Source: Tetmemena sp. SeJ-2015
Lineage: Eukaryota > Ciliophora > Spirotrichea > Sporadotrichida > Oxytrichidae
Direction: 5' to 3'
Assembly (NCBI GenBank): GCA_027382625.1
Contig: JAJKFJ010020673.1
Location: 156,637-220,636, forward strand
DNA: 64,000 nucleotides
Numbering within the stretch: position 1 is the first letter of the stretch; each line of letters begins with the position of its first letter. Below are positions 23,916 to 54,756 of the stretch, piece after piece. Under the pieces are notes generated by a model. The model was not told the DNA's origin and searched no databases. It was given only the letters and a program-made list of their open reading frames with translations. The position numbers were made by a program, and so were the translations under genes.

Positions 23916-23936
23916 GTATAGAATTAAGTTTATTTT

Positions 23937-24147
23937 ATAAAATCTTTCCATTTTACCTTTCCCAACCCTGATTTTCTGACCAGTGGTCAGGTGGTCAGAA
24001 ATAAATCTTTCAATCTTTCCTTTCACTTCTTACTATCTTACCGTTGGTCAGGTGGTCAGGAAATCAAATATTAACTGAATTTAATTAGGAATCAGAGCAA
24101 ATTGATCTTGATTTTACTTTTGACTATCTCCCTGATTCTTAGAATAT
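23937..24147 (-). repeat. Right terminal inverted repeat
   Basis: Reverse complement of 22127-22337 over all 211 bases as far as can be checked by eye. The hairpin lies at 23973-24001. Confidence 0.9.
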
Positions 24148-34800: not shown

Positions 34801-35515
34801 TTGAAACCAGGCCTTGTGAGTGCTATCATTAGACTCCTTAGATGTGCTTTTATCAATAAACTTACTCTAAGGCTTTAACAGCAGTCTCAATTTATAATCT
34901 CAGTCATCTTATATAAAATAATAATTTAGTTCAATTTACTTATGAGGTTTTGAGAGTGGGTTTTTTCCTGGTGATTTGAGAATAAGCCCAGCTAGGCTGT
35001 TGGTTGATGGCTCCTCTGTTGAAATTAGGAGTTAGCTCGTTGTCTTTAAATTGTTCTTGGTTATCATTTGTAGGAGAAACAGAGCTGGCTTCACTTTGGT
35101 GAGTACTTGCAGATTTGAATAATTAAGGTACAAGTTCTACATCATCAAGATAAGAACAGTTTTATTAATTATTTGTACGATTGTGAGGTGGTATATGCAA
35201 AGTTGTATTTTCAGCTTGTTAAGATAGGTCGTCGCTTTTGGCTTTGAGGATGTCTAAGTTTTAGGAAGGAGAGAGCTTGTGTTGGAAAGAGGAAAGCAAA
35301 TCTTCATCTTCACTGTATTGCAATAGAGAGGGAATGTTCAAGTGATGTCTGATCAGCTGCTTCTTCTTATTCTTTGTGGGTTAGTGACTCACAGACGAGT
35401 ATAAAGACCGAGAGTAGTTTGTAGCAGCAGCGTATTTTAGTCCCTGCACTCCATTACCAGTTAAATCACATCTATTTTTGCTCAAAGTCCCATCTTACAC
35501 TCTTAAAAAAATTAT
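31885..35515 (-). CDS. S/N-rich, partly coiled-coil protein
   Basis: Minus-strand segments in one direction: NGVQGLKYAAATNYSRSLYS (about 35430), KKKQLIRHHLNIPSLLQYSE, HIPPHNRTNNQQNCSYLDDV, VSPTNDNQEQFKDNELTPNF (about 35060), YPESLVQHVNLVQTSLERLV (about 34420), NSKRRIQVAISLVRRKEPIE (about 33990), MGNNQQEEPIYQEKIDNFQA (about 33520), EHTQQIEPIPQSKQSIENLN and LPIPKEDRGGNQARYKIK (about 33030), with helical remnants to about 31900. They are separated by A+T-rich DNA typical of introns or IESs. No domain recognised; disordered regulatory or cytoskeletal protein is the best guess. It could be the upstream part of the gene at 27.3-31.1 kb. Confidence 0.45.
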
Positions 35516-36258
35516 GGATTAAAGGCTTAGGAACATTTTATAAAATTAATAGAGAAGAGAACTTAATAAGAGATTGAATTAAATTTGTTTTATTAGAGAA
35601 TATTAAATTAAAAATTAAGGTATTATCTTTTGTTTTTTGGCTAGGAATTAAATTGTAATTGAGATGAGTTTAATAAATGGGTAGTTGTCTTGAGAACTCA
35701 TCTATCTTTTACCTGTTTGGATGTTTAGGTATAAACTATATTGGGTGTTTAGCATACTTTAACTTTATTTGTTGTGGGTTGACTTGATTTGCTATTTTTC
35801 CCAACATCTAGCCCTTGAGATAAATATCATAAAATACCCCACATAATAATGCTATAGATGTTTGAGGCTGATGCGAGTGGAGGGAGTTAGTAGGACTCAT
35901 AAGTTTGAGTCCATGGAGTTGAATAGAATAGGTTTTCATGATTGCAAGTGATTGGGTGAATTATTTAATGTGGAGAATATCACTCTATCAAAACGCAACC
36001 ATAATAAGATCCCCAAGCCAATTTATTACCTTTTCCACTCCCTAAAAGGGCTCTAATTATTTTAACACCTACTTTTAGAACTTCAGATCACTACTCTCCT
36101 ACTTATCTATTATATCTTGAATGGTGGAGATGATGAAGATAGATTAAATTATATCCTTTTAAATTATCTAAAGGGGAGTTCTCTTGTGAGTGATACGGAG
36201 GCTTGTGACTCGAACTCAAGCGAATAAAGTTAAAATCGATGATGGCTCATAAGGGAGT
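35516..36258. other. A+T-rich spacer
   Basis: No long frame in a consistent phase and no RNA gene recognised between the low-complexity gene and V-ATPase subunit H. Confidence 0.45.
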
Positions 36259-38009
36259 TCACTTGGTTTGCTGGAACTCGTTGCTGCTCCAGGAGTTCAT
36301 AAGCAGTTTCTGGTAGCAGGTGATTGCTTCCTTCTTGAGTTCGGCGGTGGAGCCTGGGACTTGCATGAGCTGGATGATTCTGACCTTGATGTTCATGGTG
36401 TCGAGGTACTGTCTTCCATAGGGGAAGAATCTAGCGAACTCTCCCAAGTCGAAGCAAGTACTTATTTCATCCTATTATGATTATTTAAGAGATAGCCTTG
36501 ACTCTGTCATCAGGGTGCTCAAGCAATTCAACGAGTACCTTGATGAGATCTAGGTTCTCCTTCTCGTGGAAGACGATGAAGTTCTCCTGCCAGAACTTTT
36601 CAGTGTGAACAGGGCCCCACCTGAGGGACTTTTTGTGGACCTCTTTGCGGAACTTGTCGATGGAGGAGAACACCTTGTAGTTCTGGTCGAGGTAGGTGAA
36701 CAGCTTCTCGAGCAGCTCCTGGATCTCAGGGTCAACCCAGTGTCTGTTTTGAAGCTTAAATATCAATCATCATCATAAAATGAAAGACGAATGCTTGGTG
36801 ATGAGTTGGATAGCGTTGATATCGGACATGATTTCAAGGCATTCATCGTTCTGCTTGATGTTGTCGAGGAGGAGTAGCACGATTCTGACGATCTTCTCCT
36901 TTGAGAAGTAGTCGAGCACCTTGGCAACTCTCTCAATGATTTCAAGTCTGCTATCTTCGAAGCCTCTGCTGCTGAAGGGGTGGAAGGAGATGATCCACAG
37001 AGCGTTGATCACGTTGTAAGCGATCTGGTAGTTCTTAATGCACTCATAGTTGAGGTAGTTGCTGAACAACTCGAATCCACCCTGGTCCACGAAGTCCTTG
37101 GCCAACTCATTGGTCTTCACCAAGTAAACCACACACATGAAATCAATCTATCTTAATACTAAGGTAAGGATTACATGATTGCGAAGGTGTAGGCATGGAG
37201 GGAAATGTTAGGCTTTTTCTTCTGCTCAATGAGCCAGTTCTGGAACTGTTTGGCCTCCTGTTGGCAGTTCTTGTACTCGTGTGCTTCAATGAGCATAGCA
37301 AGGATGTGAGAAGCGAGATCTCTCTGGTGAGGCTCGGGTTGGTTGTTCTGCCAGAGGAAACTGTTGAGGAGTCCGATGAGGTCTTCCTTCTTCTCCTTCT
37401 TGTGGCTGCGCTAGATCCCGACCAAGTACTGGATTCTGCTGCGGTTGTCTTCAAGAATACCATCAATAAGCATGAGAGCGAAAGTAACGAGCTTGGTGTC
37501 TCCCTTGACCTTCTTGACGATCTCAAAGAAGAGGCGGATGTACTCCTCTGCCTTGTTTTTCTATTATAGGATTATAGGATTGAGCTGATGCTTACGTCTG
37601 AGATGGTCTACTTCTGCTGATCATCAGTCATGCCCATGAACTCAGAGAACTTGGCACTGGATCCCTAGGGGAGCATTTGCTGGGCTATAATCATACAATT
37701 AGTAAATTGTCTTCAGGTCAATAAATTGCAATCCACAAATCTTATCTTAATTGCGCTCGGTATTCATGCATTAATATCCAACACGCTCTCAAGATAGATG
37801 TCTCAAATTATCCCTTATATGCTTCCATAACTTTGAACTCTACTTACATTCGAACTGCTGGATAGAAGGGTTGTACAAAGCATACTCTTGCTTCAGTCTG
37901 GGCTGATAAAATTTACTTAATATTCTCAATTGAATATAGAACTTAAGTTGATTTACATGAAGATGCTGGCGTAGAAGACAAGTTTGTCTGTGGAGGATGA
38001 GGAATTCAT
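36259..38009 (-). CDS. V-type H+-ATPase V1 subunit H
   Basis: Starts at ATG 38009 (MNSSSSTDKLVFYASIFM) and ends at TGA 36261-36259. The N-terminal ARM-like domain includes AEEYIRLFFEIVKKVKGDTK, TFALMLIDGILEDNRSRI, LLNSFLWQNNQPEPHQRDLA, then KTNELAKDFVDQGGFELFSN and IAYNVINALWIISFHPFSS. The C-terminal domain has VHKKSLRWGPVHTEKFWQEN, FHEKENLDLIKVLVELLEHP and EFARFFPYGRQYLDTMN, all diagnostic of subunit H (Vma13), which couples V1 to Vo and regulates ATP hydrolysis on endomembranes. Introns include 37561-37595 (35 nt), 37152-37174 (23 nt) and one of about 170 nt near 37690-37850. Codon use is GC3-rich, as expected for high expression. This gene fixes the genetic code: UAG and UAA occur inside it and UGA ends it. 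Confidence 0.92.
37152..37174 (-). other. 23-nt GT-AG intron in V-ATPase H
   Basis: Removal of the segment from GTAATC to ATTAAG joins AYTFAI to IQIDFMCVVYLVKTNE in frame. The neighbouring 35-nt intron is 37561-37595. Confidence 0.7.
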
Positions 38010-38169
38010 TTATTTTGTGTTTACTATTCTACTACTCAAGAATGATATTTTATTATTAAATGATACACTCTTATTCACTCAAAACTCATCCCCATAAACA
38101 ACTAACCCATCATATCTTTCCCAACCTTCCATTTAGAATTACATTACATGGAATAAGTAATTATAAAAA

Positions 38170-38834
38170 ATGAACTTTATAAAAAATTTCAGTAGAGCCT
38201 TTAGTAAAGGGCAGCAAACCAACAACAAGGTCTCTTATAGGGAGTTTTTTAAAGCCTGGCGGAGAGAAATAGTGTTGAATGCAAGAGATGGAGCTTGCAC
38301 ATTGCTTTTGATTAGTTTGACGTTCGGAGTTCATCAACTTCTATTCGGAATTACTTTATTTTAATGTATATGTACTGGGTTTATGATTATCCCAACGACA
38401 GGTCCATCAATGCTGCCTACTCTTCCTTCCAGGGACTGCATAATAATCTCAGACTGCTTCACTCCTAGATTCCTAAGAAATCCAAAAGTAGGTGAGGTTG
38501 TAGTAGTTTACAACCCTGCAGAGGGAAAACCCAATAAACCTACTCAATCATTTAAAGAAGGTTTGTTGTGATTACATTACAGTTTACAGTAGTGAAGAGA
38601 GTGGCTGGAACAGAAGGAGAGGCAATAGAATTTTTCGATGTTCGAACACAAAGGGATCAGATAGTAATAATTCCTAAAAATCACATCTGGGTGTTAGGTG
38701 ATAACCCCCAGCAATCCAGAGATTCAAGAGACTATGGACCTATTCCTTTAAACCAAGTAGCGGGCATTGGTAGATTTACTATTTGGCCCTAGAACTTAAT
38801 GTTTAAAAGTCTTAAAAGAGAGAGCGTTAACTGA
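38170..38834 (+). CDS. Mitochondrial inner-membrane peptidase, IMP1-like
   Basis: ATG 38170 to TGA 38832-38834. After a basic N-terminus (MNFIKNFSRAFSKGQQTNNK) comes a hydrophobic segment, CTLLLISLTFGVHQLLFGIT, then the S26 peptidase serine box TTGPSMLPTLPSRDCI (Ser codon 38406-38408), and the lysine box VVKRVAGTEGEAIEF (Lys codon 38595-38597), then NHIWVLGDNPQQSRDSRDYG, the conserved GDN...SxDSRxYGP box. The Ser/Lys dyad enzyme cleaves sorting presequences in the intermembrane space. A 29-nt GT-AG intron (38561-38589) lies between KPTQSFKE and VVKRVAG. In-frame TAA near 38362 reads as Gln. The gene looks intact. Confidence 0.9.
38561..38589 (+). other. 29-nt GT-AG intron in the IMP1-like gene
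   Basis: Starts GTTTGTTG and ends TTTACAG; its removal restores the lysine-box frame. Confidence 0.8.
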
Positions 38835-38989
38835 AAGTAGGCTCACTCAATATTTCAACTTCATTGCTCGTGGTAACAAATGAGTGTCAATAATATAATT
38901 TAGCATCCATTAATTCTCTTCAAGAGATTGCTGTTAGAAGAAAACTTTAATATAAAAGTAAGAGTGATTAAAGATTTGGAATAATAAAT

Positions 38990-39880
38990 ATGCAAAATCT
39001 TAATCAATCTGCCGAGCAATCGGCTGAAACTCAACGCATCTCGCACTCTTCGAATTCCGAAGACGCCAGAATCACTGACTCCACTCAAGCCTAATCTGAA
39101 GCCACTCTCGGTTTCAATGGAGGTGAAGAGTCGTCAGCAACCTCTTCCATCAAATCCAACGTTACAATGAAAGATGAGTCCTCAGACTTCTCCGTCAGGT
39201 AACCACTTAACTTCCTCCATTAGAAAAGATTCACTAAATCTAATGAGTCTAATAAAGTTGTAGAACTCCATTGACTGTTAATGAGAGCTAGACTCCCTCA
39301 GGAGACACTGTGATGCAGCAGCCTCCAGCTGTTAGTCAGAGTGAGATTCAAGGTATGCTTTCAATCTTAAAACAATAGAGATATCGAATTTCATTATTAA
39401 TTTTTAAAAGTATCTCAACTCACAATTACTTAGACATAATAGATGAACTAAATTAGCAGCAGCAGTAATTCACTCCCTTAAGTCCTGAAGAGATAAAACT
39501 TATCCACCAAGCCAAAGATCTCTAAGACGCAATCTTGAAGGCACTTGATGAAAAGAATGAGCCTTTAGAGGAGTTGAAGCAACTCAACAATTTAAATAGT
39601 GCTAGTTAATATAATTTGCTCTTTCATGATGCTCGAAGGATGCAGTGCGAACTCAACAGCTTAAATCCTCAAGACAAGCAACAATTCTACATACAGGTCT
39701 TTAAGCCACTGGTTGAAAAACTTCTCATTCTCAAGACATCCAACGGAACAGAGGTAAGTAAATCAAAACCAATACAATAATAATTGTATCTTGAGCAACA
39801 GTCCAGTAGTATATAAGAGAGGCCGTCCAATGATATTGCTGTAAAGCACTTATCTGACGCACACAAACCTACCAGCCAAT
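38990..39880 (+). CDS. Unknown Q/E-rich protein, perhaps the 5' part of the USP gene
   Basis: ATG 38990 opens MQNLNQSAEQSAETQRISHS, an S/T-rich leader, with a 25-nt GT-AG intron near 39199-39223. Later exons read VNESQTPSGDTVMQQPPAV, SPEEIKLIHQAKDLQDAILK, LFHDARRMQCELNSLNPQDK and QVFKPLVEKLLILKTSNGTE, then a 48-nt GT-AG intron, then SSSIQERPSNDIAVKHLSDA. The exon after that runs into the GC-rich homopolymer block at about 39880, where the frame degrades. No domain is recognisable. No stop is clearly placed before the USP block, so it may be the N-terminus of that gene. Confidence 0.5.
39763..39810 (+). repeat. 48-bp direct repeat, copy 1
   Basis: From TCAAAACCAATACAATAA to AGTCCAGTAGT; spans the end of an intron and the first codons of the next exon. 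The second copy at 40277-40324 has one mismatch. Confidence 0.85.
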
Positions 39881-40262
39881 GGGGATATTAAAAAACCCCC
39901 GACCTAAAATTCTGAGCAGAACCCCCCGGCTTTGCAGCCCATCCAAAAAAAACCCCAAAAAGGAAAAAAAAACCGGTAGTTTTGGGCCCCAGAGAAAGTC
40001 GTCTCCGTAGAGTCTGGTTTTCGTTCCACTGCATGATGGTTTTTCCCACAGATACATCCCCCACGCCAAACAGGATTAGGGGGGTGAGTGGGAACCACCC
40101 CCCTTTGATTTTCTCTAGTGAGCAGCTCAACACCCCCCCAGGGTTGGGTGCCATTATCCTTGTTTTTAAGCACTCACCCACAGCCAAGGGGATTACCAAA
40201 CCCAAAAAGCCTTCGGGAAAAAGGGCACCGGGCCTGTGCCCGTGGGTCCTAATTTTTAACTT
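39880..40262. other. GC-rich, homopolymer-laden block
   Basis: Abruptly GC-richer than the flanks, with runs such as AAAAAACCCCC, CCCCCCGG, AAAAAAAACCCC, GGGGGG and CCCCCCCCA. Minus-strand frames exist in all three phases but shift at homopolymers, so no gene is supported. It sits between two copies of a 48-bp direct repeat. It could be low-quality or misassembled sequence, or foreign DNA. Confidence 0.5.
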
Positions 40263-40276
40263 TCAAATTTAATAAT

Positions 40277-40324
40277 TCAAAACCAATACAATAATAATTG
40301 TATCTTGAGCAATAGTCCAGTAGT
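40277..40324 (+). repeat. 48-bp direct repeat, copy 2
   Basis: Same word as 39763-39810 with a single C/T difference; the flanks differ. Confidence 0.85.
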
Positions 40325-40569
40325 TTTGCACTCATTTTATTTGGAATATTGCTCTAATTAGAATTGGAATATCATTTAAAGTAAATGTATAGAAACTAGT
40401 AAATAAGCGTACCATGCTTAAAATATCTTCAATAATAAAATGTTTCTTAAATTCCTATATCCTAAATTCATTCAAATTTTTTTCTAAATAAAATCTCACA
40501 TTCTCCTATCTCTTAATTGCACATGAGTAATAATTTAGATATGAGTTATTAGTTTTTTTGTTAATTTCT

Positions 40570-42720
40570 GGCGATTAGATAGTGCACTAAGTTTTCAAGT
40601 ACTTCCGCTGCTTGTTGGTGAACTTCTTCTCCCAAGATGTGACCTCTGATTAATTATTATTATTTTGAAAGCTTGACTGACCTAGTGCGTTAGATCTTCA
40701 ACAGCGATGCAGCAATCTACGGTCTGGCGATGCAGAGTGGCTACACTAAGCAAATTAACCAAGTATTTCCATTCTTTATTGTTGACCAATGACTATAGCT
40801 TTAAGTGGCTTCCTCTTCCATTTCTGAAGAAGATGAAGGAGATCTCCTCACTGATCAAGTCAGAGCCAAGAGAGAGATACCCTGGAGAATGTCACTAGCT
40901 GTTGGCTCCAGAGTAGACGCAATATTCATTTCCAAGGTCTCAACTGTCAATATGAGCTAGTGGATCAAGGCTACAGTTATTCAGACTTTTGAAAATGGAG
41001 ATATCAGAATCACATACGATAACATAAGTGCCAGATTCGACAAGGACTTGTCTAGATTTTCCTATTCTATTGCTCACCCAAATACATACACAGACGACCT
41101 CGAGTGGAAGATTCACCTGGAGAGTGATGACTGGATAGACGCAATGGATGTGGAGCACGTATGGTACAGATCAACCATTCTCAGAACGAGATTCATCGAC
41201 GACGATATAAGAAGCGAGATCAATGGAGAACTTCAACCACCCAAGAAAATCAAGCAAGGCTTTGTTCAAAATTCTTAATAGAAATAGGTATTAATTTGTT
41301 GGATATAGGATTTATGATGAGGAGGAGGGCCATAAAAATGATGATAATGGCAAGAAGTTCCTCGGCTGGGGCAACAAGTAAACTAAATTTATAGTGAGAC
41401 GGGATATCAAAATTTAAATTAATACTACGATATTGATCTCTATTTTTGTTGAATCTGCCGATTTAGTTTAATTTTGTTCGACTCTAACTTTAGAATATGA
41501 ATTTAATTGTCTTTGTATTTTTTTCTTTTAGCCCTTTTCTTTAATAGTTGTTTATGATGTTTGGCTTAGCTTGTACGAGCCCCAAATTTAAAGGCACAAA
41601 ACAATGATAAAGAACTACAAGATTGTGGGCAAAGACTTCATGATTTATGACTAAATGCTATTCGATGACAATGCAGATATTATCATAAACTCTCGGACTC
41701 GGAAGCTCTATGCCGTCCCCAGAAGCAATGCCTTTTCGGGTTTAAGAAACCTACCAGACTTCTTAAATGAGTTCGGACTTAACTATGGCTTTGAAAAAAT
41801 CTTGCGATTCCTCCACGACTCTTCGATTCCTAAGACCGCCAAATAGATTTACGATTTGGTTGAGTTCTTTGCCAAAACTTAGTCTCTTTGGTAGAAGTAG
41901 TTTGCCTGTTACTTCATTCCTAAACTACTAGAGGCTGTGAAAGCAAGTCTTTTCCCTCAGGCGTCTAACAATCAAGACTCCTAGAGCTAAAGAAGCCCTT
42001 TGGTTGTGAGCTATCACAAGGAAGCAGTTCAAAACTTGTCCAAGAGTTTACAGAGTATCCTGAGAAGATAGTATACCACCACAGACTACACTATCATAAT
42101 CGCCAGCATCAACTTTGAAATAGGATTCGCTCTCTTGAAGGCAGAAAGACTTGAGCTCAGAATTTAGGGCATAAAGGAAATCATTGAGCAAATTAGAGGC
42201 ACTAAGTATTCAAGTAAGAAAACTCTAAAGGCCTCTGAAGTGATGGCGAAGCTAAAAGAGAACAACATTTTAGAGACTGTCTTTGGAGATAACTATCACA
42301 TCCAAATAGTTCAACGCTCCTCTGACATCATCAATAGAATAAATAGTTTCTCTCTTTCTCTAAATGTTTGTATATTTTATCAAGTTCTACATCCAAGAGA
42401 ATTAAATGAATGAGGAGGAGATTGATATCATATGGAACGCAACTAAGAGAGAGCAACAAACCAAGCTTGAAATCTATAAGATACTTTCAGAGTGCTCCAT
42501 GTAACTCAAGCCAGACAAAGTTCTTATGTTTGTCCAAAAGTTTAGGCAGATTTCTCCCTAAGAATTCGTAGAGAAGGAAATAGAGTGCCTCTATGAAATG
42601 ACTAAGTACTTTAGCAAAGATAATTAGCATGTTCTAGAAGTTGCATAGCTCTTCTGGGATATTGCAGTCAGGGAGAGACCTTACAAAAAGCAGCTCATTG
42701 AACTTGCCATGGATAAATTA
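40570..42720 (+). CDS. USP9X/USP34-class deubiquitinase, block A (N-terminal region)
   Basis: Plus-strand segments: VHQVFKYFRCLLVNFFSQDV, IFNSDAAIYGLAMQSGYTKQ, then a tudor/agenet-like stretch LAVGSRVDAIFISKV, WIKATVIQTFENGDIRITYD, DWIDAMDVEHVWYRSTILRT and FLGWGNKQ. From about 41600 there is an ARM-like helical repeat region (MIKNYKIVGKDFMIYDQMLF, LRNLPDFLNEFGLNYGFEKI, LKENNILETVFGDNYHIQIV, EEIDIIWNATKREQQTKLEI, QLFWDIAVRERPYKKQLIEL), as in the large non-catalytic part of USP9X/USP34/USP24. It stops at the 12-bp pointer ATGGATAAATTA (42709-42720), and the continuation is block B at 49087. Small introns (for example 21 nt near 41287) are present. The 5' end is uncertain. Confidence 0.8.
42709..42720 (+). 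other. Pointer ATGGATAAATTA, tail of USP block A
   Basis: Exact 12-bp match to 49087-49098, with different flanking bases. Joining gives ELAMDK-LADLIRNQDREIK in frame. Confidence 0.88.
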
Positions 42721-42779
42721 TTAAAATAAATTGAAAGTACCTGCTTGAATAAAATTAGTTGTTAAAATTAAATTTTAAA

Positions 42780-44014
42780 ATGAAGCTAAGATAAACTTTG
42801 GATCATCTATAAATGAAGTACAGATTTTAAGCTCCGAGGGCACAGATGAGATATATCTTGGTCTCAATAGCTGCATTATCTATGATAGCATAAGACATAT
42901 GAGCTATTTAGCAATCAACGGCAGCAGAATTAAGCTAGAATGATATGCTCTAGAATTAAGTTGATGTTTAATTGAGCACCTATCTTTAGACTTAGTCAGA
43001 CCAGCTAATCATACCTAATCAATCATAATTTGTAAGTTATATTTCTTTCTATGGATGTATTTGCTTTAATATTCCTGATAGGACCTTTAAAAGTATAAAA
43101 GTTAAGAGAAGTTTGGTAGTATCCCTAGGCTAAAAAGCAGAATACTAGCTTAGGTGGACGCCTTCACAAAATCTTAGAATTTAGAACTGGAAGAAGATGT
43201 AAACGAGAATCCGCATAATGATCTAATATATTAGTATGACCCCTAATCATCATCTGGAGGATAGTCGAGCTTTAAAAACGATGCTTTTGAATAAGAGGAT
43301 GATTATACTTAAGATGATATGATTGAGCAGGAATCCAAAGGCTTTGAAAGTTCTAATGTTAAGGAATAGGCAGATGGGAATATTTCTGATCAAAATTAAA
43401 TAGATGGAGATAAAATAAAGGCTATGATTTAGAATGCTAAAAATCGACTACCTATCCATGGCTTCATAAACATTTCCTCTTAGAATAACTTAGTAATTTT
43501 ATTTTAGAACTCTAATAGTCCTCTAATATATTTAAAAGAGTACCAAGAGAAATCAGAGTATGAAATTCATTTAGATAAAGAGTCTAATAAAAGTACAGTA
43601 AGCAATAATTCAAGCAAATAAGAGATAACAATTTAACCATCAGCTGATGATCCCTCCATACTTGAATACTTAATCAGAGCTACAGTTTCAGCTAAAGAAT
43701 TAGGCGATTCACTTTTAAAAGCAGGAAGCATTTTATTTGTACCAGGTGGTGACAAAGATGACTTAAGCAAAATAAGCGCAGAGGAGAAAAGCTAGCACTA
43801 ATAGGTTTAGGATTTAAGAGAATAGCAAGCTTCCCAACTAAAGACAGACAGCTATAGAATAGTGGCAGTGATAGCTTTGGTAACCGTATTTTTATGCTGC
43901 GCATGCTCTTAACTCATGGTCAGAGCTTCAAAAGAAAGCAGACTCTAACTTAATGCCTATTACCACAATAAGGGTTTTATTTTTTCAAAAAGAAGATGGA
44001 AAAGAACTTCTTGA
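42780..44014 (+). CDS. Membrane protein in the gap of the scrambled USP gene
   Basis: An upstream segment reads INFGSSINEVQILSSEGTDE and YLGLNSCIIYDSIRHMSYLA (42780-42942). From about 43090 one long frame follows: SIPRLKSRILAQVDAFTKSQ, an acidic/Q-rich stretch (EQEDDYTQDDMIEQESKGFE), KNRLPIHGFINISSQNNLVI, VSAKELGDSLLKAGSILFVP, and a transmembrane helix YRIVAVIALVTVFLCCACSQ with a basic cytoplasmic tail (FSKRRWKRTS) to TGA 44012-44014. This is the layout of a type I membrane protein with an acidic luminal region. The first segment and the long frame are separated by A+T-rich DNA (IES or intron). Family unknown; the start is not settled. Confidence 0.55.
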
Positions 44015-44328
44015 TTCAAAGATTCGTTCGAAGAGAAAGAGACGAAGAAAGAAAGCAGCAAAGAGAGTAAATGCAGTCTTAGCTATGAGCAGAAGATTTA
44101 TAAAAACCTATTCATTGAGGCAGCCCACATGTAAGAATAGCGAAATTCAATCATTGTGAAATAAAATTTATCTTTCCTTGAGAAATATTCCACTAGTTGA
44201 AAATAATGATGCATTGAAGGTTTTTATAGCAAATATTAATGTTTGAAATCCTCCTCAATAAAAGAGGAATGAACTTTTGAGCTTCAAGAAGCTTGAAATA
44301 TTTAAGGAACTTCTTTTCCTTAAAACTC

Positions 44329-47300
44329 TCATTTGAGATTAGATTGGCACATCTCGCACTGAGAATAGTAGGGCGAGTTAAAGTAAGTGCACACTGGGCA
44401 ACTTATTTCGGCCATTGCATCGTCATTCATGAAGTTAGTTTCCACATCAGCCATTCCATTTTGTTGCTGATTTGAAGTAATGATATCATTCATAGGCAGA
44501 ACTACCTGATTATTGTCTCTTTCCACATTTTATAATAGCTATTTAGTATGATAAGCTAAGATAAATAAGATTGATTGAAGGATTGATTAACATTGGGTCT
44601 TTTAATTTCAAAGAGAGTCATGTAATCTCCCCAAGTGTCGAAAGGCCTCAACTTAGTCAATATCAAAATATCATAGCTTTTTCCTCCAAGTAGGGTAGCT
44701 TAGATAGGCGAGTAAGGATTTTTAAAGTTGATTCTTGATTGAGGACGGCCTTGTTCATCAATTTGATGGTTATCTTTGACAGTAAGTTCAACATTCACTG
44801 GGTTCATCAAGTCCATATTTTAAACAGTGAAGACAAGCACACACTATGCATCTACTTCCCAGTATTCTGGCTGAGCGTTATAAAAAATTCGTTTTCGAGT
44901 TGAGGAGGCTCTTCATCCTCTTACTCTTCTATCATTTGCTAATTCTGCTCAATCTGGTTACTCTTAGATTAGTTGAAGCTATCATAGGCATATTCTTAGA
45001 CTGGACCCTTCTCTAAATCGTGTGAATCTTGATTATTGTAGCTCTATTAATCCTATTCCTTATTGTTAGTTGTCAACAGATTCTGTTGATGAGGCTCGGG
45101 AACAATTCCATTTCTTGTGGCAGAAGCAGATACAGATACAGAGTTGCTTCCTCCATTCTCCATGGTTTAATCGTCCTATTGAGGAATTTCACTGTCAAAT
45201 AGCAAGTTGTCCTGAGGATCCTAACTCAACTTCTGATAACTAAAATAAGTGTATGCATCCTAGTATTCAACCTGGTCTTACTGATTATCGTTATTATATT
45301 CAACTTCCATTGAATTGTCTTGGCTCTTTTGCTTTTCATCAACATCTAGATCGTTCAGGCTTTAATAAAAGAAGTATGTTCAGATCTTAGAAGTCTTGAT
45401 TGTTACCTATTAATACGGCTCCATCCTCATTAGGGTTTGCTTCTGCAAACTATAGCTGAGTTCCATCTTGCTCGTTTCCATAACTTCTCTGTTCGTAGGG
45501 ATTAGGATCATCTTAGCTGAGATGATGATGATCTTCCCTGTGTTTTGTGGGCTTCAAAATCTTGAACTTGCTATTTTCTATCTGTGTCTGGTAAGTGCCG
45601 CTTTCTTAATGAAGATTGAGATTTGCCCCTCTACCATAGTTCCTCTTTCTATTCTTCTTGTTAGCCCTATTAAGCATTTCTTCTTCTCTTTCAAAGCTAC
45701 TGCTGTTGTTGTTGTTTCCATATTTGTTGAACTAGTTGGGGGTGAAGACTTGATTGTATCTGCCGTCGGGTCTTGACTCTGAGATATGCACTGTTAGCTC
45801 TTTAACTGAGAGTAGCACGCTGCCTTCGTATTCTTGCTCACTTATCACCTTTTCATCCACTATATTCCAAAGCATATACAATGAGATAAATAAGTGAGAT
45901 ATACTAGTCAGGACCTCCATCCAGAGAACTTAATCTTAAAATAAATTTAAACTATAAGCAAAAGGAACCTGCTTTTTTGTCTATTCAATATTCTATCCTT
46001 GGTTATTAGATGCTTAAAAATATAGATTGAGGTTGATCCTGCTTCAGAGCTGAAGTAGAAGTGTCTATTTAAATTGAAGCTTGCTCTGCCTTATCCTGAT
46101 CCTTCTCATTTGGATTTGAGGGTGCGCCAGGAAGATTTTCTTTTCTAAAGCATAATGTGTGTTTAAAAAAAGCATTCGTAGAATTTATCAAGCCCAGTTT
46201 GAATATAGATTCTTTCCATCTGCTGTTGCTGAGTATTTAATAAAAAAATTATCTATATACTGAAAAATAGCATATATTTCCTCTGACATAGCTAAGTTGA
46301 TCTTGTAAGAATGGAGCTATCCAATCTATGTATCTTCCATAAACGTAGCAAGGAGGTTCCATCAGTGCGAGATAAGAAGCCAAGAAGCCATTTGTGGAGC
46401 AAGCATCCATTAAAACAATAAGTGCTCTTGTCACAAGCTTAGAGTATCTTCTCCTTTAAACATAAAGCAGCTGAAGTAGACTGTCCTTCAAGTTTGAATG
46501 TATCTTGAATAGTGGAGATTTGTACTCGAAAACTTCATCTGTAGGGTTACTCAACAGTTGCACTCTGATAATAAAATATATAAATCTCACTCCTAGTTTG
46601 TTTATAGAGAATTACTCATTATTTCTCCACTCTGTACGATGCTCGATCTTAAGGGAAGGCACACCGAGAATCCAAGCGAATCTTTCTACACACAAATGGT
46701 CTTACATCTTCATCAGCATTTAAAAGTTTAAATTTACAAGGCCAATAACAAAGGCTCAGCATCGTCGTTGCTGATTTTATTGATGCCTAGTATTATAATA
46801 TTTCATAAGTCAATAAATCACTCAAAGAACTTATTAGAAAATTGATACTATGAGTTTGCATATCTTCCTGGAGAAGTCATAATTGCAGTAACTCAAATGA
46901 GTGATCATCCTCGAGAATTCTAATCGCTCGTACCCAGATTTTAAGTTTCTGGAGTAAAAGGCCTTCTAATTAAGCATAAAAATATCCTCCTCGCTTAAAG
47001 GTTCGAGAGCGACATTATCACCATACTCTTTCATGAATAAGAAAGTAAAGCCAGCATGTCTATAAAAATCTAAGTATCTCTATCGCTCAGTGTCTTCTCC
47101 GGGCATCTTCAAGCTAACATAGTGCCTTACTATCCAACTAAGCGTTAATACGCCAAAAATTGAAATTAGAAGTTCAAATAATTTTCACTATCATACATTA
47201 TAATATCAATGAGTCAAGCTGAGGAGAAGCATAGCTAGAGCCCATAAGTTATCTACTTTTATTGACATTCTTTGGGCTATCTTATTCCATGAATAAGTCT

Positions 47301-49048
47301 ATAAACTTGGTGACTATGCCATTTTTAACAAAGTAGTTAAATTGTTTTGGCCCAGACTTTATCAACTCGAAAATTAGAGATAAAACTTATCCTATCTTCA
47401 GCCAATTCTTAGAAAACTCCTCTGGAATCATTGCAAAGATAGGTTGCATTATGTCATCAACTTTATCAATCTAATCTATCTCAAAGAGTTGATTCACTAT
47501 GAAGAGAAGAGTGTTCTTGTTCGTTTCTCTCTTTTCAGAATCTATGTTCTATATCATATTCTCTATGAAAGTTCTTTCATCCTTTTCTAATTTGGACTTG
47601 TCCACTAAAATTCTGCTGCTTATAAACTGAGCCATCACTTCTTTGTTCAAGCTAAGAGCTCTTAAGAACAGTTAGTAGAGTGCTTTGTAATTTTAATTTT
47701 CAGTGATGAATGGAATCAACTCAAAGATCATCTTCTGCATCATTTCAAATAATGACTAGCTTATATTAGAACCGCTCTCAAATACGAAGGGCTACTTCTC
47801 CACAAGAAGTTCTAATAGATTCTTCATGAAGGCAAAAAAGTCGTTGTTCAGAATTTGCTTCTCTCTTAAGAACAAAGTGTTATCGTCATGCACGTGCTAA
47901 AAAAGTATTGAAGGAGATAAATAAAAGGCTTACCCTGTAAATTTAATGAGGTACAAATTATTAGGCAGAGTTGAAGTCGACTAGAATATAATGCTCATTT
48001 CTTTCTTCGTCAAATTGGATGCCATTCTCACTAAGGAGAAGCTCTCTAGCAGAGGGTACCACGTGCAAGAAATATAATAAATAGTTGTCGTATGAGTTAA
48101 TTTACTCAACTGCTCTAGAGATTGCGGTACCATCGCAACCTAGAGACTTGGATATTCTCACGATTTCCTCAGGGACAACAATCTTAACATATCAAATCGA
48201 TACAAATAGTTATGATCTTGATCTTCTGCTTTCTGCGCTTCTCATAAATGAGCATGTAGGCATTTTTCGTGTAGTCATAGTCTGTTTTCATATCTGATGA
48301 AGAAGCACCAAATCCTCCTTACATCTGTCCTCCAAAGCATTCATCTTCCATACGAATAAACTAGAACATCTTCACTTGCGAATCGTTAAATTCAAGCCAT
48401 CTTTCATTGTTGGTGGCTAGCCATTCGGGTTTCTCCTCATCTTTCTCACCTCTTTAAGTGTTAATGTAAGAGATGTAATGTCCTGCTTGAGCAGTTCCCA
48501 TATGAACTACAACGCCAACTAGTTTGTACTCAAAATCTTCATCTTGAAGATCTTAACTGCCAGATTCTCCATAATCGATTTCCATTTCCTCATCTTCACT
48601 AGACTCAACTTCAAATTGTGCTTGCTTTGAGGGAGATTCATTCAGTAAAAGCATTAAAAAGTGATTTTATAAATCTTAAATCTTTTGATTCAAAGGTTCG
48701 TCTGCTTCATCCTTTCCTTCTTCCTTCTTTTACTTTCTGGCTATCTCTGCAGCCTATTTCAAAGCATCTATTTCTCTTTGCTTTTCCAATTTCTTCTGAC
48801 TCTTTTTCGCCTTCTTTAAAAGCTCCTTTTCTTGTTTCATAATCTCGCTCATCATGTAAGGCTTCAGATTGAGAACATTTGGGAACTCTAGCAAAAATAT
48901 ATTAAAGCTTTGAGTTAAGTTTAACATTCTAGAAGGTATCGAAGTCAAACACTATTCTTTGCAAATGCACCATTAACATATTTGGTAGCTTCTCAATCAC
49001 TGATCGTCTTTCAATATCTACTCTTTGGTTGCAAGCTTCACACTTAAA
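44329..49048 (-). CDS. USP deubiquitinase, block C (inverted; second half of catalytic domain to C-terminus)
   Basis: Read on the minus strand from the pointer at 49048-49040: FKCEACNQRVDIERRSVIEK (zinc knuckle), NMLMVHLQRIVFDFDTFQNV, then EFPNVLNLKPYM, and the His box YKLVGVVVHMGTAQAGHYIS (His codon 48480-48478), followed by ERWLEFNDSQVKMF and NAYMLIYEKR. These are the second half of a USP fold. Downstream come helical repeats (NNDFFAFMKNLLELLVEKQP, EEFSKNWLKIGQVLSLI, HAGFTFLFMKEYGDNVALEP, STNGFLASYLALMEPPCYVY), a Q/N-rich stretch, and a C-terminal RanBP2-type zinc finger CPVCTYFNSPYYSQCEMC, ending at TGA 44331-44329. There is no start codon at its head: it is a continuation of block B, whose Cys box is on the other strand. 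Confidence 0.88.
48890..48905 (-). other. 16-bp IES with GCT pointer in USP block C
   Basis: Copies of GCT (minus strand) at 48908-48906 and 48892-48890. Excision of 16 bp restores NSKLEFPNVLNLKPY, the conserved USP sequence. Confidence 0.7.
49040..49048 (-). other. Pointer TTTAAGTGT, head of USP block C
   Basis: Exact 9-bp match (minus strand) to plus-strand 54599-54607; encodes FKC in both blocks in the same phase. Confidence 0.88.
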
Positions 49049-49086
49049 TCGATCATAGTTGACTTAAATCAGCTTTTAAAAGTACA
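49049..49086. other. 38-bp spacer between divergent block heads
   Basis: Only 38 bp separate the pointer that starts block C (minus) from the pointer that starts block B (plus). It is non-coding and presumably eliminated. Confidence 0.7.
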
Positions 49087-49098
49087 ATGGATAAATTA
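49087..49098 (+). other. Pointer ATGGATAAATTA, head of USP block B
   Basis: 12-bp partner of 42709-42720. Confidence 0.88.
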
Positions 49099-52000
49099 GC
49101 AGACTTGATTCGAAACCAAGATAGGGAAATCAAGTACAACTTTATCATGAACAGCATACTTAAGCTCAAGAGTAATGAATCTGCTATTCCCGCCATCAAG
49201 ATTATCTAGAATATCATTTCTCAAATACCTCAGCACAGAACGTCAGATAAGGCATTGACTCTTTACGAGTACTCAAATATTCTAATTAAAGAGGAGGATA
49301 TAATCAATCTCGTTATTTATGATCTCACTTAATACAATGAGCAAATTAATGAAATGTGGGAAAAGAAAATCCTAACAGAATAGAATGTCGAGAACTTGGA
49401 TATCCTCGATTTACCTTTCACTCACAGATCCCAATCCTATATAAGATTGAACTTTATTAAGAACAGTAAGTTTATTTGATGATTAATTTTGCTTTTAGTG
49501 CTTCAAAATAGCTAAACTATGCTAGAAAAGGAATAGCTAGATCAAATATGGGACTTGCTAATGGTTAGATCAAAGGTCTCTATCGACTTTGACATATTCT
49601 TCGACTGGCTAAGAAATTTGCTTCAAGATCAAAATAAGTTGTCCCCTGCTTTAATTCATCATTTCTTCGAGCATAAGGTATGCTCGCAAGATAATCCAGT
49701 TAATTTCTTCCACATTAAAAAGTCAGGATTCGATTGCATAAAGAACATGTTCGTGCTTATCAATGAGGAGGCAGAGAAAATTTATAATATCAATCCTGCA
49801 GCTCTCAAAGCCGCTGCAGGTAATAATCTTGGACAAAAGCTAGAAATTAAGGTTCTGGTACCTCCTAATGAGCTAATTGGCATCAATGTTATATGGAGGA
49901 TGCTCTCAGAATGCGACAAGAGAAACTCTGAACTAGTCTCCATTATTATAGAGCTTATTACAAAGGTTTATCATAGCATATCTAATTAATTGGAGCATTA
50001 GAAGCATTAAATTGAAGATCAGTTCTGTAAGAGCACAATAGAAAGAATCGCAAATGTTGCCAATAATTCAGAAATATCTGATAATGATAAGAGAAACTTC
50101 TTGAAGAGCTGTTCAACAATGCTCAAATCATTCTTCTCAGATTCTGAAAGGAATCTCTATTTTTATTCAAAGAATTTTTAATGGGAATGGAACGGGAGGT
50201 ATTAGACCTTTTTACAGTATAGAAAAAAATATCTTCATAGAAAACCTCATTATCCAAAATGCTATAACTGCTCAAAAGAATGCACCTAAGTATATATCTC
50301 TTAGCGTTTACTCAAACATTATAAGTCAGAACTTTATAAAAATTCGGATTAAAAAATTATTTTTAATTAATGTTTTCTCAAATGATGAAGAATACCCATG
50401 ATGATCATTCAGTAACACAGCTTAAATATACTCTTAATCTGAGTTCAAAATTACATATTTTATAATATTGCACCCGATTCAATAAATTTGATAATATATA
50501 GCGAAGTGTATCTTAAACCATAATAGGATATTAATTATTCTTGCTAATTAGACTAAAACATTGTCAAAATCAGTAAATTCTTAAGAGAACCCAAACTCGA
50601 TCTACAGATAAAACGATTTCAGCTAAAAAAATGAAAAGATTAATTCTAAGCTAATCATTTCAACTTCTTTTTTATATCAGTATATATTCCTTAAATTCTA
50701 CCCTATACTATTTGGGAATTGAAGAAGATCATCTCTTCTAAAATAAGAGTGAATCCTCTTAAAATTTAATTGATTAGATCGGACACTAAGAAGAAAGTAA
50801 TTTAAGAAACAGACAATTATTTATGAGCTTTAATTAATTGAATGACATATTATAATTAAATGGAATGCCGAGATCCTTCGTAGATTCATTTTTGAGCCAT
50901 ACGAAATAGTAAACGCTTAGAGAAAGTAAATTTCTCCCATCCCAAAGGTTCCTCTACTTACCAAAACAAAAGAGCTCGTCCCAGAGGCTAAAGCAATTTT
51001 TGCAAGTTGGTTCTAGAAATTCTCTGTTGATGGATGGATGACCCCCGATACTTGTACTAATTTCATAAGAGCCAGCACAACCGATCAATCTGTATCTAAA
51101 GAAGATAACAGAGTCGTGAGACTATTCAACACTTATGATGAGGATTGTGATGGATTAAAACTTACTTATATTTTATAGTATGGAAGGATATCTCTTGAAG
51201 AGTTTTTGAAGTTCTATCAAGATTCTTGCAAAGACAGGCCAGAATTGGTTTGGAGTAACTTTTATATTAAAACCTTAAGACCCATCAAATTGGGCAGGAT
51301 TTAAAGCCAATTCAACCTTATGACTCCCTCGAAGATCCATTAGAAGTAAAAGACCCTCAAGTACTTCCAAGATTCAGACTTTCTAGCAACTAGGAGCTCT
51401 TCAATGGATTATTTGAGCTCTTCCCCAAGCTTAACCCATTCTCTTAAAATGAACTTAGAGAATTCATAACTCATATGAGAATTAATCCTTTCATATACTC
51501 AAAGATGCTATCTCTAAGTGGCCTTAGTGAACTTTTAGAGGAAAAAAGTTTAGAGAAGATTCTTTACAATCTTGAGATATTCAGTGTACTCTTGCAAGAG
51601 CACTCAAGTATTAAGCAATCTCAAATCAAGTTTAATTAGTTTTAAGTCCTATTACTTCGAAAACCAAGATTATAACAAAAATTTCCCAACATTAAATGCT
51701 ACTGAGACATAATCTTAAACCAAGCAACAAACATAAGATGATCATACCTTCATGTAAGATGCAAGAATCAAGCAGAGTGCAGGTCCAGCCTCCGGTGAAT
51801 AAGATACTGATGTAAGAATGGAATCTGGAAGAATTCATGATAGCAATGTAGCAATTGCTTTGCCTTCTGCTACTTAGGGCCCAGTTATGGTAGGATAAGG
51901 AGCTCATATTCCTGATGCTCCTCATATGATAAATGCACCAACCTACGGACCCAGTGTGCCACCCACTTATGTTTAAGCTACCCAAGGTTCGTAATCGTAA

Positions 52001-54607
52001 TCTGTCTCAGCAAGCATTTCATAAAATAGTTTCAAAAACAAGGAAATGATTGAGTCTTTTAAGGGTCATATCTAACATTTTATATCGTCTCAGAAAACTA
52101 TAGTGATTCCATTATCCCAGATGAAGAGGTAGCCTTTTATCTTGGGGTGAATGATCTATCTCTTGTCTAAGAGTTGCACTAAACTTTTGTTTAGAGCTTC
52201 ATTTAAAATGATGGCTTCAAGATTCTCTTGTAATTGATGCACAAACTGATAAATTTAGGCAAAAGCCAAAAGGAAGAGCAGATATTTTAGAATAGAGCTC
52301 ACAAAGAGGGACTTCAGTGCATTATTAAAATCATGAGAACTTTCCTAGTCTCTTCATTCATTGCTAATTCAGAGGGAAGTGATGCCACTTTATAGCTGAG
52401 AAAGTAAATATCGTCAAAGCCTGAGGAAAAGCAAACTATTGACAGCTCTTCTCTTCTTCTTCAAATATTTTTTTACTTTTCACGAGAACGCTTTCATGGA
52501 TGACGATCTTGAGTCCTAAATTTTCAATTAAGACTCTAAATAACAGTAGACCATTACTCAAGTTCCCTTTATTAACTAAAGCTAGAATCAATAAAATCAA
52601 AGCAACTAAAATGATAAAGAATAAAAGAAAAGCAAAATTATTTTTTATTCAGTCAGATCAAGAGGACTTTGAAAATGAATACAAGCCACTTATATAAGTT
52701 CTAAAGGGGGCTCTTGGCCACTAAATTTTGTCAACAGTAGACTTTGTTAGCTTATAGAATGAAATATTTGAGGCTCTATTTTTACTTTTCAAGAAGAGAG
52801 TACTATTCTAAAGAATAATGGAGAGAGCTAAATATTTTGTACTTTTTTGTTAAGTAAACATCTGAAATCTGTTTTCTAATCTAGAAAAATTAAATCATTT
52901 TCTGATTTCTCTTTTTATTAAGGGCATTTTAGATAACAAAATTAAAGAAGAAATTTAATTCTTATCTTCTACTTATAAAATTAAATCACCTAGCATTGAT
53001 TTATTTGATCTGTTGAATAATTGCCACAGATTTTGATAACGTACAGCTTTTAATATCTCTGTGGATTTCAATTGTTCTATACAACCATTCCCTGCTTTAA
53101 AATATCATGAATGACTACTATCATCGCAATGAAGGTTCTATTGAGGGCCAAAGTAGTTTATTAGATTTATAAATTTAGCATAATTAAATTAGATCTGATG
53201 ATAATGAATGGCTTACTTTCTAATGAAAACAAAGCCAAAACTGCTATGGAAGAGGCACTCAAATTCTTGTTCATAAATCTTAAGATAAAGGAAAATGAGG
53301 TCAAGGAGCCACCATACCTATTCCTACTCAAAGTTTTAATTAACAACTCCAGAATTACAGATGGAAGAGCTGACCATAGCAGATAATATTTTGCGTTGAT
53401 GGCATCTCTTTTTGAAAGCTATTTTGAGGCTAAAAATTCTTAAACCAGAGACCCTTTAGCTATATTTATTAAACTTGTTTAACTTCTTAAAATGGACCCT
53501 AAATTCGTCGAAATATTTGTTTCCAAAGAGATCCTTTAAGAGTTTATCATCAAGCTCTAAACGTAAATTTGCAGAAATTAAAATTTGATTTAAGATAAAA
53601 TAAGATTCAATTTATGAGTCGACCGAGACTAAAAAGAAAGCATTTTTCGTCGACTTTAATTAAACTGGATACTTGAAGATTATAGATGTTATTCTCAAGC
53701 ATGAGTCAAATATCTTGAACATTGATGAGGCGAGAAATCTAGCGACCTACCTAATTGAGTAGTGTCTCTTCTTCAGTGATATTCCTCCTCTACAATAGCA
53801 CTTCATTAAGGGCACAAATTTAAATGAATACGAGAAGCCTTATCTTAATAAATGTCTTTCTTCCCTGTCGAGAGAAATAGCTTACAAAATTTTATATTGA
53901 TTACAATCTTCTCAAAACTATTTGCAATAACTGCTTAGAATTGATCCCTGAATTGATGATTACTCACATTTAGAACTACCTTAATAAGGTTAGCAAGCCT
54001 AAGCGTAACAATTTCTCGCCTAAGACAGAAGGGAGGAGCTTTCACAATTTTTGCGGTATCAGAAATTTAGGCAGCATCTGCTATATGAACTCCATGATCC
54101 AGCAGTTCTTCCATATCCCAGCCTTTAGATATTGCTTAATGGCTGCTGAGGATAACGAGCCACTCAACTTGTAAATCTTTGAAGGAAGAGAGGTAAATGA
54201 TAACATGCTACACTAGCTGATAAAGTTTATGGGCTTTATGGAGCTATCGGAGAGAGAGGACTATGATCCTCGTGACTTCTGCTTCAGCTTTAAGGACTTC
54301 GCAGGATAGCCTACTAATGTCCGCATTTAGCAAGACACTCAAGAATTTCTGAATCTCGCCTTTGATAGAATTGAGAGACAACTTGCTTCAACTTCTCAGA
54401 AATATTTGCTCAACAACATATTCCAAGGATCTACTTGCTCGCTCATGATTTGCAAGAACTGTGGAAATCTGAGATAGAACAGGGATAACTTCTATAACTT
54501 GTCTTTGGAAGTGAAGAATCAAAAGAGCATCCTAATGTATTTAATAATTTATCTATGATTCACTCAAGAAATTTGTTTCAGGGGAAATCATTAACGACTT
54601 TAAGTGT
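49087..54607 (+). CDS. USP deubiquitinase, block B (middle region and first half of catalytic domain)
   Basis: Helical repeat region: DKLADLIRNQDREIKYNFIM, FDIFFDWLRNLLQDQNKLSP, FHIKKSGFDCIKNMFVLINE, VIWRMLSECDKRNSELVSII. An EF-hand-like stretch follows (VRLFNTYDEDCDG, ISLEEFLKFYQDSCKDRPEL), then LFELFPKLNPFSQNELREFI, a P/Q/S-rich linker (51700-52060) and further repeats (HQTFVQSFIQNDGFKILLQL). The catalytic domain opens with GIRNLGSICYMNSMIQQFF (Cys codon 54079-54081), VRIQQDTQEFLNLAFDRIE and CSLMICKNCGNLRQNRDNFY, and stops at SGEIINDFKC on the pointer 54599-54607. Sequence from 50180 to 50850 is A+T-rich and probably an IES. A GT-AG intron lies near 49470-49500 and a phase slip at about 51280. 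The enzyme should remove ubiquitin from substrates. Confidence 0.88.
54532..54553 (+). other. 22-bp IES with ATC pointer in USP block B
   Basis: ATC at 54529-54531 and 54551-54553. Excision joins LEVKNQKSI to YDSLKKFVSGEIINDFKC in frame. Confidence 0.7.
54599..54607 (+). other. Pointer TTTAAGTGT, tail of USP block B
   Basis: 9-bp partner of 49048-49040 on the other strand; downstream bases are A+T-rich and no longer encode USP sequence. Confidence 0.88.
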
Positions 54608-54756
54608 TAAGCTTAGTTAGCATAAGTGAAATGAAATAGCAGAGTAAAAATAAACTTAGGAATGAATTATACATACACCAGAATAAATTATTTGTTCCTT
54701 CACTATCAAAAACTACTTGCATGCTTATTGAATAGGAGAGAAGATAAATTCCTCTT

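What the first reader, a model, noticed from the sequence alone, without database searches (positions are those of the whole stretch)
40570..54607. Giant USP gene is scrambled with its catalytic domain split onto opposite strands
Seen directly: the Cys box (54079-54081, plus) and the His box (48480-48478, minus) of one USP fold are on opposite strands. Block A ends and block B begins with ATGGATAAATTA; block B ends and inverted block C begins with TTTAAGTGT. Both joins preserve phase and give conserved USP sequence (ELAMDKLADLIRN; INDFKCEACNQ). The required order is A(+), B(+), C(-), spread over 14 kb. Established knowledge: hypotrich ciliates unscramble such germline genes at pointers during macronuclear development.
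Basis: partly seen in the sequence, partly recalled or inferred. Interest (0 to 1): 0.92.

Follow-up and report, generated by a model that had tools for sequence, protein, structure and literature searches.

The report
Germline deubiquitinase gene stored scrambled
A ciliate keeps a large protein-recycling enzyme gene in its germline as three out-of-order pieces, one of them backwards, so that the enzyme's active site lies on opposite DNA strands; it is a clear new case of a known phenomenon, and a related gene with only one flip offers a way to test how such scrambling builds up.

Summary
Three coding blocks of one USP9X-like deubiquitinase lie as A(+), C(-), B(+). The Stylonychia lemnae homologue, one 3537-aa protein from an 11,130-bp contig, maps collinearly as A-B-C, and the matches overlap exactly at the two proposed pointers. 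B-end alone matches the first half of Pfam UCH, C-start alone the second half, the join all of it. The blocks also carry small AT-rich frame-breaking inserts, 14 of 33 flanked by direct repeats of at least 3 bp, as ordinary IESs are. Block A is under strong purifying selection between haplotypes (dN/dS 0.03), and a second contig confirms that B does not follow A.

Corrections: the gene starts near 38,990, not 40,570. The A-C spacer holds another ORF. Spirotrich is supported; 'hypotrich' is not proven. The same-species somatic gene was not found, and C's inversion rests on one contig.

New: the same genome has an unscrambled paralogue (C3146) and one laid out A(+), BC(-) (C3344) with a 10-bp inverted pointer about six codons from the window's A/B junction. 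Inverting B in that layout gives the window's. Shared ancestry of that junction is favoured by three trees of four data sets, not settled. New member of a known kind.

The parts
38990..39753 (+). Block A, first part: N-terminus, from an ATG aligned with the first Met of P0001
   Evidence: Protein-to-DNA fit of P0001 and frame check; the most N-terminal ~60 residues align poorly
39754..40578 (+). Interruption of block A with intron-like ends (GTAAGTA...TTAG); removing it restores frame and homology; in this haplotype it contains a 514-bp insertion
   Evidence: for ends and frame; for the insertion, absent from contig C4937
40579..42720 (+). Block A, second part
   Evidence: P0001 133-740; dN/dS 0.032 against haplotig C4937 over 588 codons
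42709..42720 (+). A/B pointer, first copy, ATGGATAAATTA; kept in haplotig C4937
42721..44328 (.). Spacer between A and C, to be removed; holds an unrelated + ORF at 43079-44014
   Evidence: ORF partly covered by the haplotig, dN/dS 0.24 on 8 changes
44329..49048 (-). Block C, inverted: second half of the catalytic domain, C-terminal region, RanBP-type zinc finger, TGA stop at 44331-44329
   Evidence: P0001 2176-3456; UCH profile 133-254; zinc finger E 7.9e-4, below Pfam's cut-off; stop
48478..48480 (-). Catalytic His codon
   Evidence: letters; alignment to USP9X
49040..49048 (-). B/C pointer, second copy, TTTAAGTGT on the minus strand
49049..49086 (.). 38-bp spacer between the head of C and the head of B
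49087..54607 (+). Block B: middle of the protein and first half of the catalytic domain
   Evidence: P0001 735-2180; UCH profile 1-139
49087..49098 (+). A/B pointer, second copy
54079..54081 (+). Catalytic Cys codon
   Evidence: letters; alignment to USP9X
54599..54607 (+). B/C pointer, first copy; similarity to C runs on past it as a decayed extension
   Evidence: p 0.0013 of 6 tests
42330..42378 (+). Conventional IES-like insert, 49 bp, repeat ATCAA
50152..50185 (+). Conventional IES-like insert, 34 bp, repeat GGAAT
52070..52083 (+). Conventional IES-like insert, 14 bp, repeat ATATC
53883..53901 (+). Conventional IES-like insert, 19 bp, repeat TTACAA
54529..54550 (+). Conventional IES-like insert in the catalytic domain, 22 bp, repeat ATC
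   Evidence: residues on both sides match paralogues without it
48892..48907 (-). Conventional IES-like insert in the catalytic domain, 16 bp, repeat GCT
48186..48219 (-). Conventional IES-like insert, 34 bp, repeat AAGAT
47149..47203 (-). Conventional IES-like insert, 55 bp, repeat TATTA
46723..46736 (-). Conventional IES-like insert, 14 bp, repeat TAAAT

Best explanation
This is the germline (micronuclear) form of a scrambled gene for a giant USP9X-like deubiquitinase in a spirotrich ciliate. During development of a new macronucleus the three long macronuclear-destined stretches are re-ordered: A joins B across the 12-bp pointer, B joins the re-inverted C across the 9-bp pointer, one pointer copy is lost at each join, the spacers (with an unrelated ORF) are removed from this product, and the many tiny AT-rich inserts inside the blocks are cut out at their own short repeats. 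The result would be a contiguous gene like that of Stylonychia lemnae. Shown here: layout, pointers, in-frame joins, homology across both joins, the small inserts, purifying selection on A. Inferred: the developmental joining (by template RNA, as known for Oxytricha) and the somatic product in this species.
For: Pointer letters and places. UCH split into complementary halves. USP9X in the PDB collinear across the A/B join and across the B/C join. S. lemnae single-contig homologue collinear A-B-C, with overlaps at the pointers only. Pointer runs improbable by chance: 1.3e-6 and 8.8e-5. Of 54 inserts in the fit, 33 break the frame, are not GT-AG and are at most 150 nt; 14 of these 33 have flanking repeats of at least 3 bp (control mean 2.3) and 7 of at least 5 bp (control mean 0.26), reached in 0 of 2000 control draws. 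dN/dS 0.032 for A between haplotypes, 33.5 synonymous to 4.5 non-synonymous changes. Haplotig C4937 runs from A through 700 bp of spacer without B. Germline setting: 220-kb contig with several genes and a 2-kb element with perfect 211-nt terminal inverted repeats. C4A4 20-mers at 67 places, at least 11 of them at the very end of a contig. Scrambled pointers longer than ordinary ones, as reported for three spirotrichs (section 8 of PMC9797194).
Against: No contiguous same-species copy: 0 matches to the joined 30-mer and 33-mer with up to 3 mismatches, and the DNA search found no second copy of B or C (3 matches, only C4937 a true copy). The inversion of C is seen on one contig only. 19 of the 33 frame-breaking inserts lack a 3-bp repeat at the fitted boundary, so introns, poor alignment or assembly errors are mixed in. 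The species is unknown and the S. lemnae homologue only 44% identical.
Confidence: 0.93

Rival explanations
1. Assembly artefact: a mis-join or false inversion of the 44.3-49.0 kb stretch in an otherwise linear locus.
For: Only one contig covers the C/B boundary; no second haplotype was found for it.
Against: Both breakpoints fall exactly on in-frame repeats at the homology-defined joins. A simple inversion of C would leave A-C-B or A-B-C(-), and here B lies after C on the plus strand. The A end is confirmed by a second contig. A paralogue on another contig has an inversion at nearly the same junction.
Confidence: 0.03
2. A gene broken by chromosomal inversions and no longer joined: a pseudogene, or separate expressed fragments, or fragments joined by RNA trans-splicing.
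For: Staggered-break inversions can also leave short inverted duplications (recalled). No joined copy was found. The selection test covers A only.
Against: Purifying selection on A. Long conserved frames in all three blocks and 68.6% identity to S. lemnae over the catalytic domain. The A/B repeat is direct, not inverted. Many other inserts in the same gene need DNA-level or RNA-level removal.
Confidence: 0.03
3. On history: the similar A/B junctions of the window gene and of paralogue C3344 arose by two independent inversions at nearly the same place, not from one ancestral inversion.
For: Catalytic-domain trees pair C3344 with the unscrambled C3146 (93/93, 89/92). Junctions differ by about six codons and pointers differ in sequence. 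No residual similarity flanks the C3344 pointer.
Against: Full-length trees put C3344 with the window gene and S. lemnae (97/99; SH-aLRT 98), as does the N-terminal part (91/93). Holding C3344 with C3146 has AU p 0.027. The catalytic set does not reject the shared grouping (AU p 0.118). Conserved pointer positions with changed sequences are the published norm (passage of PMC9797194).
Confidence: 0.4

Closest known systems
Scrambled germline genes of Oxytricha trifallax and Tetmemena sp. (PMC9797194; passages and section 8 read)
   Same: Out-of-order and inverted segments joined at pointers longer than those of ordinary IESs; scrambled genes tend to lie in families with paralogues
   Different: Here only two scrambled junctions between multi-kilobase blocks in a large gene; the most scrambled genes there have about 200 junctions
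Scrambled genes of Strombidium cf. sulcatum and Halteria grandinella (PMC10901763; abstract and section 19 read)
   Same: Spirotrich germline; inversion is the main kind of scrambling in S. cf. sulcatum (69.4%)
   Different: Different gene; species identity with this genome was not tested
Scrambled DNA polymerase alpha genes and their stepwise evolution (Hogan 2001, Chang 2005, Wong and Landweber 2006; seen only as citations in PMC9797194 and PMC1805493)
   Same: Stepwise growth of scrambling, with an inverted part
   Different: There compared between orthologues of several species; here the three layouts are paralogues within one genome
Stylonychia lemnae ubiquitin carboxyl-terminal hydrolase family protein (P0001)
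   Same: Orthologue in every tree made (100/100)
   Different: Contiguous, on one 11,130-bp contig; its germline form was not available
USP9X / FAF-X deubiquitinase
   Same: Best PDB match of the catalytic domain and the only one of the A/B region
   Different: Long acidic insert between the catalytic Cys and His parts and a C-terminal zinc-finger-like end

Membership tests
Scrambled germline (MIC) gene of spirotrich ciliates | Coding segments out of order and/or inverted relative to the somatic gene | tested here: met
   Against the S. lemnae homologue, not the same species
Scrambled germline (MIC) gene of spirotrich ciliates | A short direct repeat (pointer) at the end of segment n and the start of segment n+1 | tested here: met
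   12 bp and 9 bp at the two joins
Scrambled germline (MIC) gene of spirotrich ciliates | Contiguous somatic copy with one pointer at each join in the same species | tested here: inconclusive
   0 matches in this assembly; the assembly is not known to hold the somatic genome
Scrambled germline (MIC) gene of spirotrich ciliates | Ordinary IESs bounded by short repeats | tested here: met
   14 of 33 frame-breaking inserts with repeats of at least 3 bp, control mean 2.3
Scrambled germline (MIC) gene of spirotrich ciliates | Spirotrich identity (C4A4 telomeres, reassigned stops) | tested here: met
   C4A4 20-mers at contig ends, frames open with TAA/TAG as Gln, nearest homologue in Stylonychia; rRNA searches failed. 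The built-in control is uninformative because the pattern is its own mirror
Scrambled germline (MIC) gene of spirotrich ciliates | Unscrambling during macronuclear development | not testable with these tools
   needs cells or developmental sequence
USP (UCH, PF00443) deubiquitinase, USP9X-like | Full UCH domain with Cys and His boxes once joined | tested here: met
   profile 1-254, E 1.6e-44; boxes align to USP9X
USP (UCH, PF00443) deubiquitinase, USP9X-like | USP9X-type helical N-terminal region | tested here: met
   7yxx_A residues 239-855, E 2.1e-22
USP (UCH, PF00443) deubiquitinase, USP9X-like | Deubiquitinating activity | not testable with these tools
   needs protein

The most novel reading that the evidence does not exclude
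The gene family keeps, in one germline genome, the successive states of how a scrambled gene arises by inversion: C3146 linear A-B-C; C3344 with B and C flipped together, A(+) BC(-); the window gene with B flipped back, A(+) C(-) B(+). If the A/B junction is ancestral to C3344 and the window gene, then the inversion predates the split from Stylonychia, and the S. lemnae germline orthologue should be scrambled near residue 735-744 of its protein.
Probability: 0.5. Interest if true: 0.65.

Novelty: new member of a known kind. Interest (0 to 1): 0.5.

Why it matters
Scrambled genes are well known, so one more is not a surprise in itself. This one is useful because it is simple: two junctions, long blocks, clean 12-bp and 9-bp pointers, a catalytic domain cut between its Cys and His boxes, and paralogues in the same genome in an unscrambled and a once-inverted state. 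That makes the order of inversions in the origin of a scrambled gene directly testable, with a sharp prediction for Stylonychia and Oxytricha germline DNA.

Tried and rejected
(pattern for the A/B join) was mis-designed and says nothing; searches replaced it. A first gene model from codon usage with GT-AG introns chose wrong 'introns' over real inserts and was dropped for the fit to P0001. No tRNA and no Rfam match in the window. Pfam finds no family for the spacer ORF. I first took C3344 as a plain evolutionary intermediate; the catalytic-domain tree disagrees, so it is given as likely, not shown. The idea that both pointers are decayed longer duplications is supported at one of six flanks only after correction (B/C downstream, p 0.0013; A/B upstream 0.017 and B/C upstream 0.043 do not survive six tests; A/B downstream 0.17; both C3344 flanks 1.0). 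The proteins of C3344, C3146 and the window used in the full-length trees were fitted to P0001 residue by residue, which biases the alignment towards P0001; the ends of the C3344 and C3146 fits are forced by the stretch given.

A literature search for a scrambled deubiquitinase gene (at least 4 of 5 terms) listed 6 papers, none about one by title or start of abstract; most subscription papers are not in that library.
Full report
1. Check of the observation. ATGGATAAATTA occurs twice in the window, at + 42709 and + 49087. TTTAAGTGT occurs at + 54599 and on the minus strand at 49048-49040; a third copy, + 48453, lies inside C. In random pairs of places of this window, a shared run through a fixed register reaches 12 bp with frequency 1.3e-6 and 9 bp with 8.8e-5.

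2. One protein in three blocks. B-end alone matches positions 1-139 of Pfam UCH (PF00443), C-start alone 133-254, and the join 1-254 with E 1.6e-44. The best PDB match of the joined domain is USP9X (5wch_A, E 1.9e-44; 98 distinct sequences matched, 60 shown). The joined end of A and start of B is collinear with USP9X residues 239-855 (7yxx_A, E 2.1e-22, the only match).

3. The contiguous homologue. A search of 5.8 billion proteins with the conceptual A-B-C protein gave 27 proteins; the best by far is a Stylonychia lemnae ubiquitin carboxyl-terminal hydrolase family protein of 3537 aa from one 11,130-bp contig, 44% identical over the whole query. That public S. lemnae genome is macronuclear (known; the title of PMC4122937, seen in the listing). 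Residues 133-740 fall on 40591-42723 (+), 735-2180 on 49084-54613 (+), 2176-3456 on 49048-44595 (-). The matches overlap by six and five residues, exactly at the pointers. The protein's first 132 residues extend the gene upstream to an ATG at 38990, with an 825-bp interruption at 39754-40578 that has intron-like ends. C ends in a TGA at 44331-44329.

4. Ordinary IESs in the same gene. A protein-to-DNA fit of P0001 to the three blocks gave 54 inserts of at least 8 nt. Two have GT-AG ends and are probable introns. 33 break the frame, are not GT-AG and are at most 150 nt long. Of these 33, 14 have direct repeats of at least 3 bp at their boundaries and 7 of at least 5 bp; random placements of the same lengths give means of 2.3 and 0.26, and 0 of 2000 draws reached the observed numbers. 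Nineteen of the 33 have no such repeat, so the set is mixed. Two clear cases, 22 bp with ATC and 16 bp with GCT, sit in the catalytic domain, where paralogues have no insert. The scrambled pointers (12 and 9 bp) are longer than these (3-6 bp), as reported for Oxytricha, Tetmemena and Euplotes woodruffi (PMC9797194, section 8).

5. Alive, and not an artefact at A. Contig C4937 is a second haplotype of the stretch from window 31649 to 43421. It passes the end of A with the same pointer into 700 bp of the same spacer. Between the haplotypes A has 33.5 synonymous and 4.5 non-synonymous changes over 588 codons, dN/dS 0.032. No second contig covers B or C. Neither joined junction occurs anywhere in the 146-Mb assembly with up to 3 mismatches, so the somatic form of this species remains unseen.

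6. Germline setting and organism. The window is the last 64 kb of a 220,636-bp contig. It holds several genes and a 2-kb element with perfect 211-nt inverted ends. Frames are open with TAA and TAG as Gln. The 20-mer CCCCAAAACCCCAAAACCCC is found at 67 places, 9 at position 1 of a contig and at least 2 more at the other end. This fits a spirotrich germline assembly; the rRNA searches failed, and 'hypotrich' is not shown.

7. Paralogues. A search of the own genome with the joined domain gave 37 matches (51 candidates scored). C3146, with its second haplotype C4972 (93-97% identical over the main matches, 88% over a 345-bp end piece), has A, B and C in order on one strand. C2462 has fragments of all three in order on one strand. 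C3344 has A on the plus strand up to 13385 and B with C, contiguous, on the minus strand from 23528 down to about 13526. Its A and B share TTAAGAACTG in inverted orientation (13376-13385 + and 23528-23519 -), in frame and at the place that homology demands; in a search of 600 by 800 bases it was one of two 10-bp matches, and the only one at that place. The junction is about six codons further along than the window's. Contig C1290 is a second haplotype of C3344's B block with the same pointer and a repetitive element inserted 262 bp outside it.

8. History. From linear A-B-C, one inversion of B with C gives A(+) BC(-), the layout of C3344. Inverting B alone in that layout gives A(+) C(-) B(+), with the heads of C and B side by side: the window has exactly this, 38 bp apart. 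Trees: the window gene pairs with S. lemnae at 100/100. Full-length sequences add C3344 to that pair (97/99; SH-aLRT 98), the N-terminal part does so at 91/93, but the catalytic domain pairs C3344 with the linear C3146 (93/93; 89/92). Holding C3344 with C3146 has AU p 0.027 on full-length data; holding C3344 with the window pair has AU p 0.118 on catalytic data. I take the shared inversion as somewhat more likely than two independent ones. Past the B/C pointer the B side still resembles C (p 0.0013; 0.008 after six tests), as the model of decaying segment duplications predicts (PMC9797194 section 8); the other five flanks do not pass the correction.

9. Mechanism. By the known spirotrich pathway (established, not tested here), the developing macronucleus joins A to B and B to re-inverted C at the pointers, guided by RNA from the old macronucleus, and discards the spacers and small IESs. 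The germline copy cannot encode a working enzyme because its Cys and His boxes are on opposite strands.

10. Verdict. It is a new member of a known kind; the paralogue series is what raises it above routine.

Noticed in passing
window 39759-40324: A 514-bp insertion (462 bp, 48% GC, between two 52-bp direct repeats, 96% identical) is absent from haplotig C4937, which has one copy of the repeat; it lies inside the interruption of block A.
   Followed up: partly
window 43079-44014 (+): A 311-aa ORF in the spacer between A and C, kept in the haplotig (dN/dS 0.24 on 8 changes), no Pfam family; one gene's coding DNA seems to lie within another's eliminated spacer.
   Followed up: partly
window 43014-43051 and C2732:5679-5716: 38 bp, 97% identical, shared with an otherwise unrelated contig, next to a GTAAGT motif in the spacer ORF's region.
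   Followed up: no
window 22127-24147: Element of about 2 kb with perfectly complementary 211-nt terminal inverted repeats, likely a young DNA transposon.
   Followed up: no
window 31242-31874: Short inverted-repeat element (31-nt perfect and 84-nt 80% arms), MITE-like.
   Followed up: no
window 54757 to beyond 56000 (-): HECT-domain E3 ligase gene (PF00632, E 9.2e-26 for one ORF) ending 150 bp beyond block B, tail towards it: ligase and deubiquitinase genes side by side.
   Followed up: partly
window about 38300-38835 (+): Signal peptidase S26-like gene just upstream of block A (PF10502, E 3.6e-6 for one piece).
   Followed up: partly
C1290:1-5500: Repetitive element (51 matches listed, 40 of 312 candidates scored) inserted 262 bp outside the B pointer in one haplotype of the C3344 locus.
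   Followed up: partly
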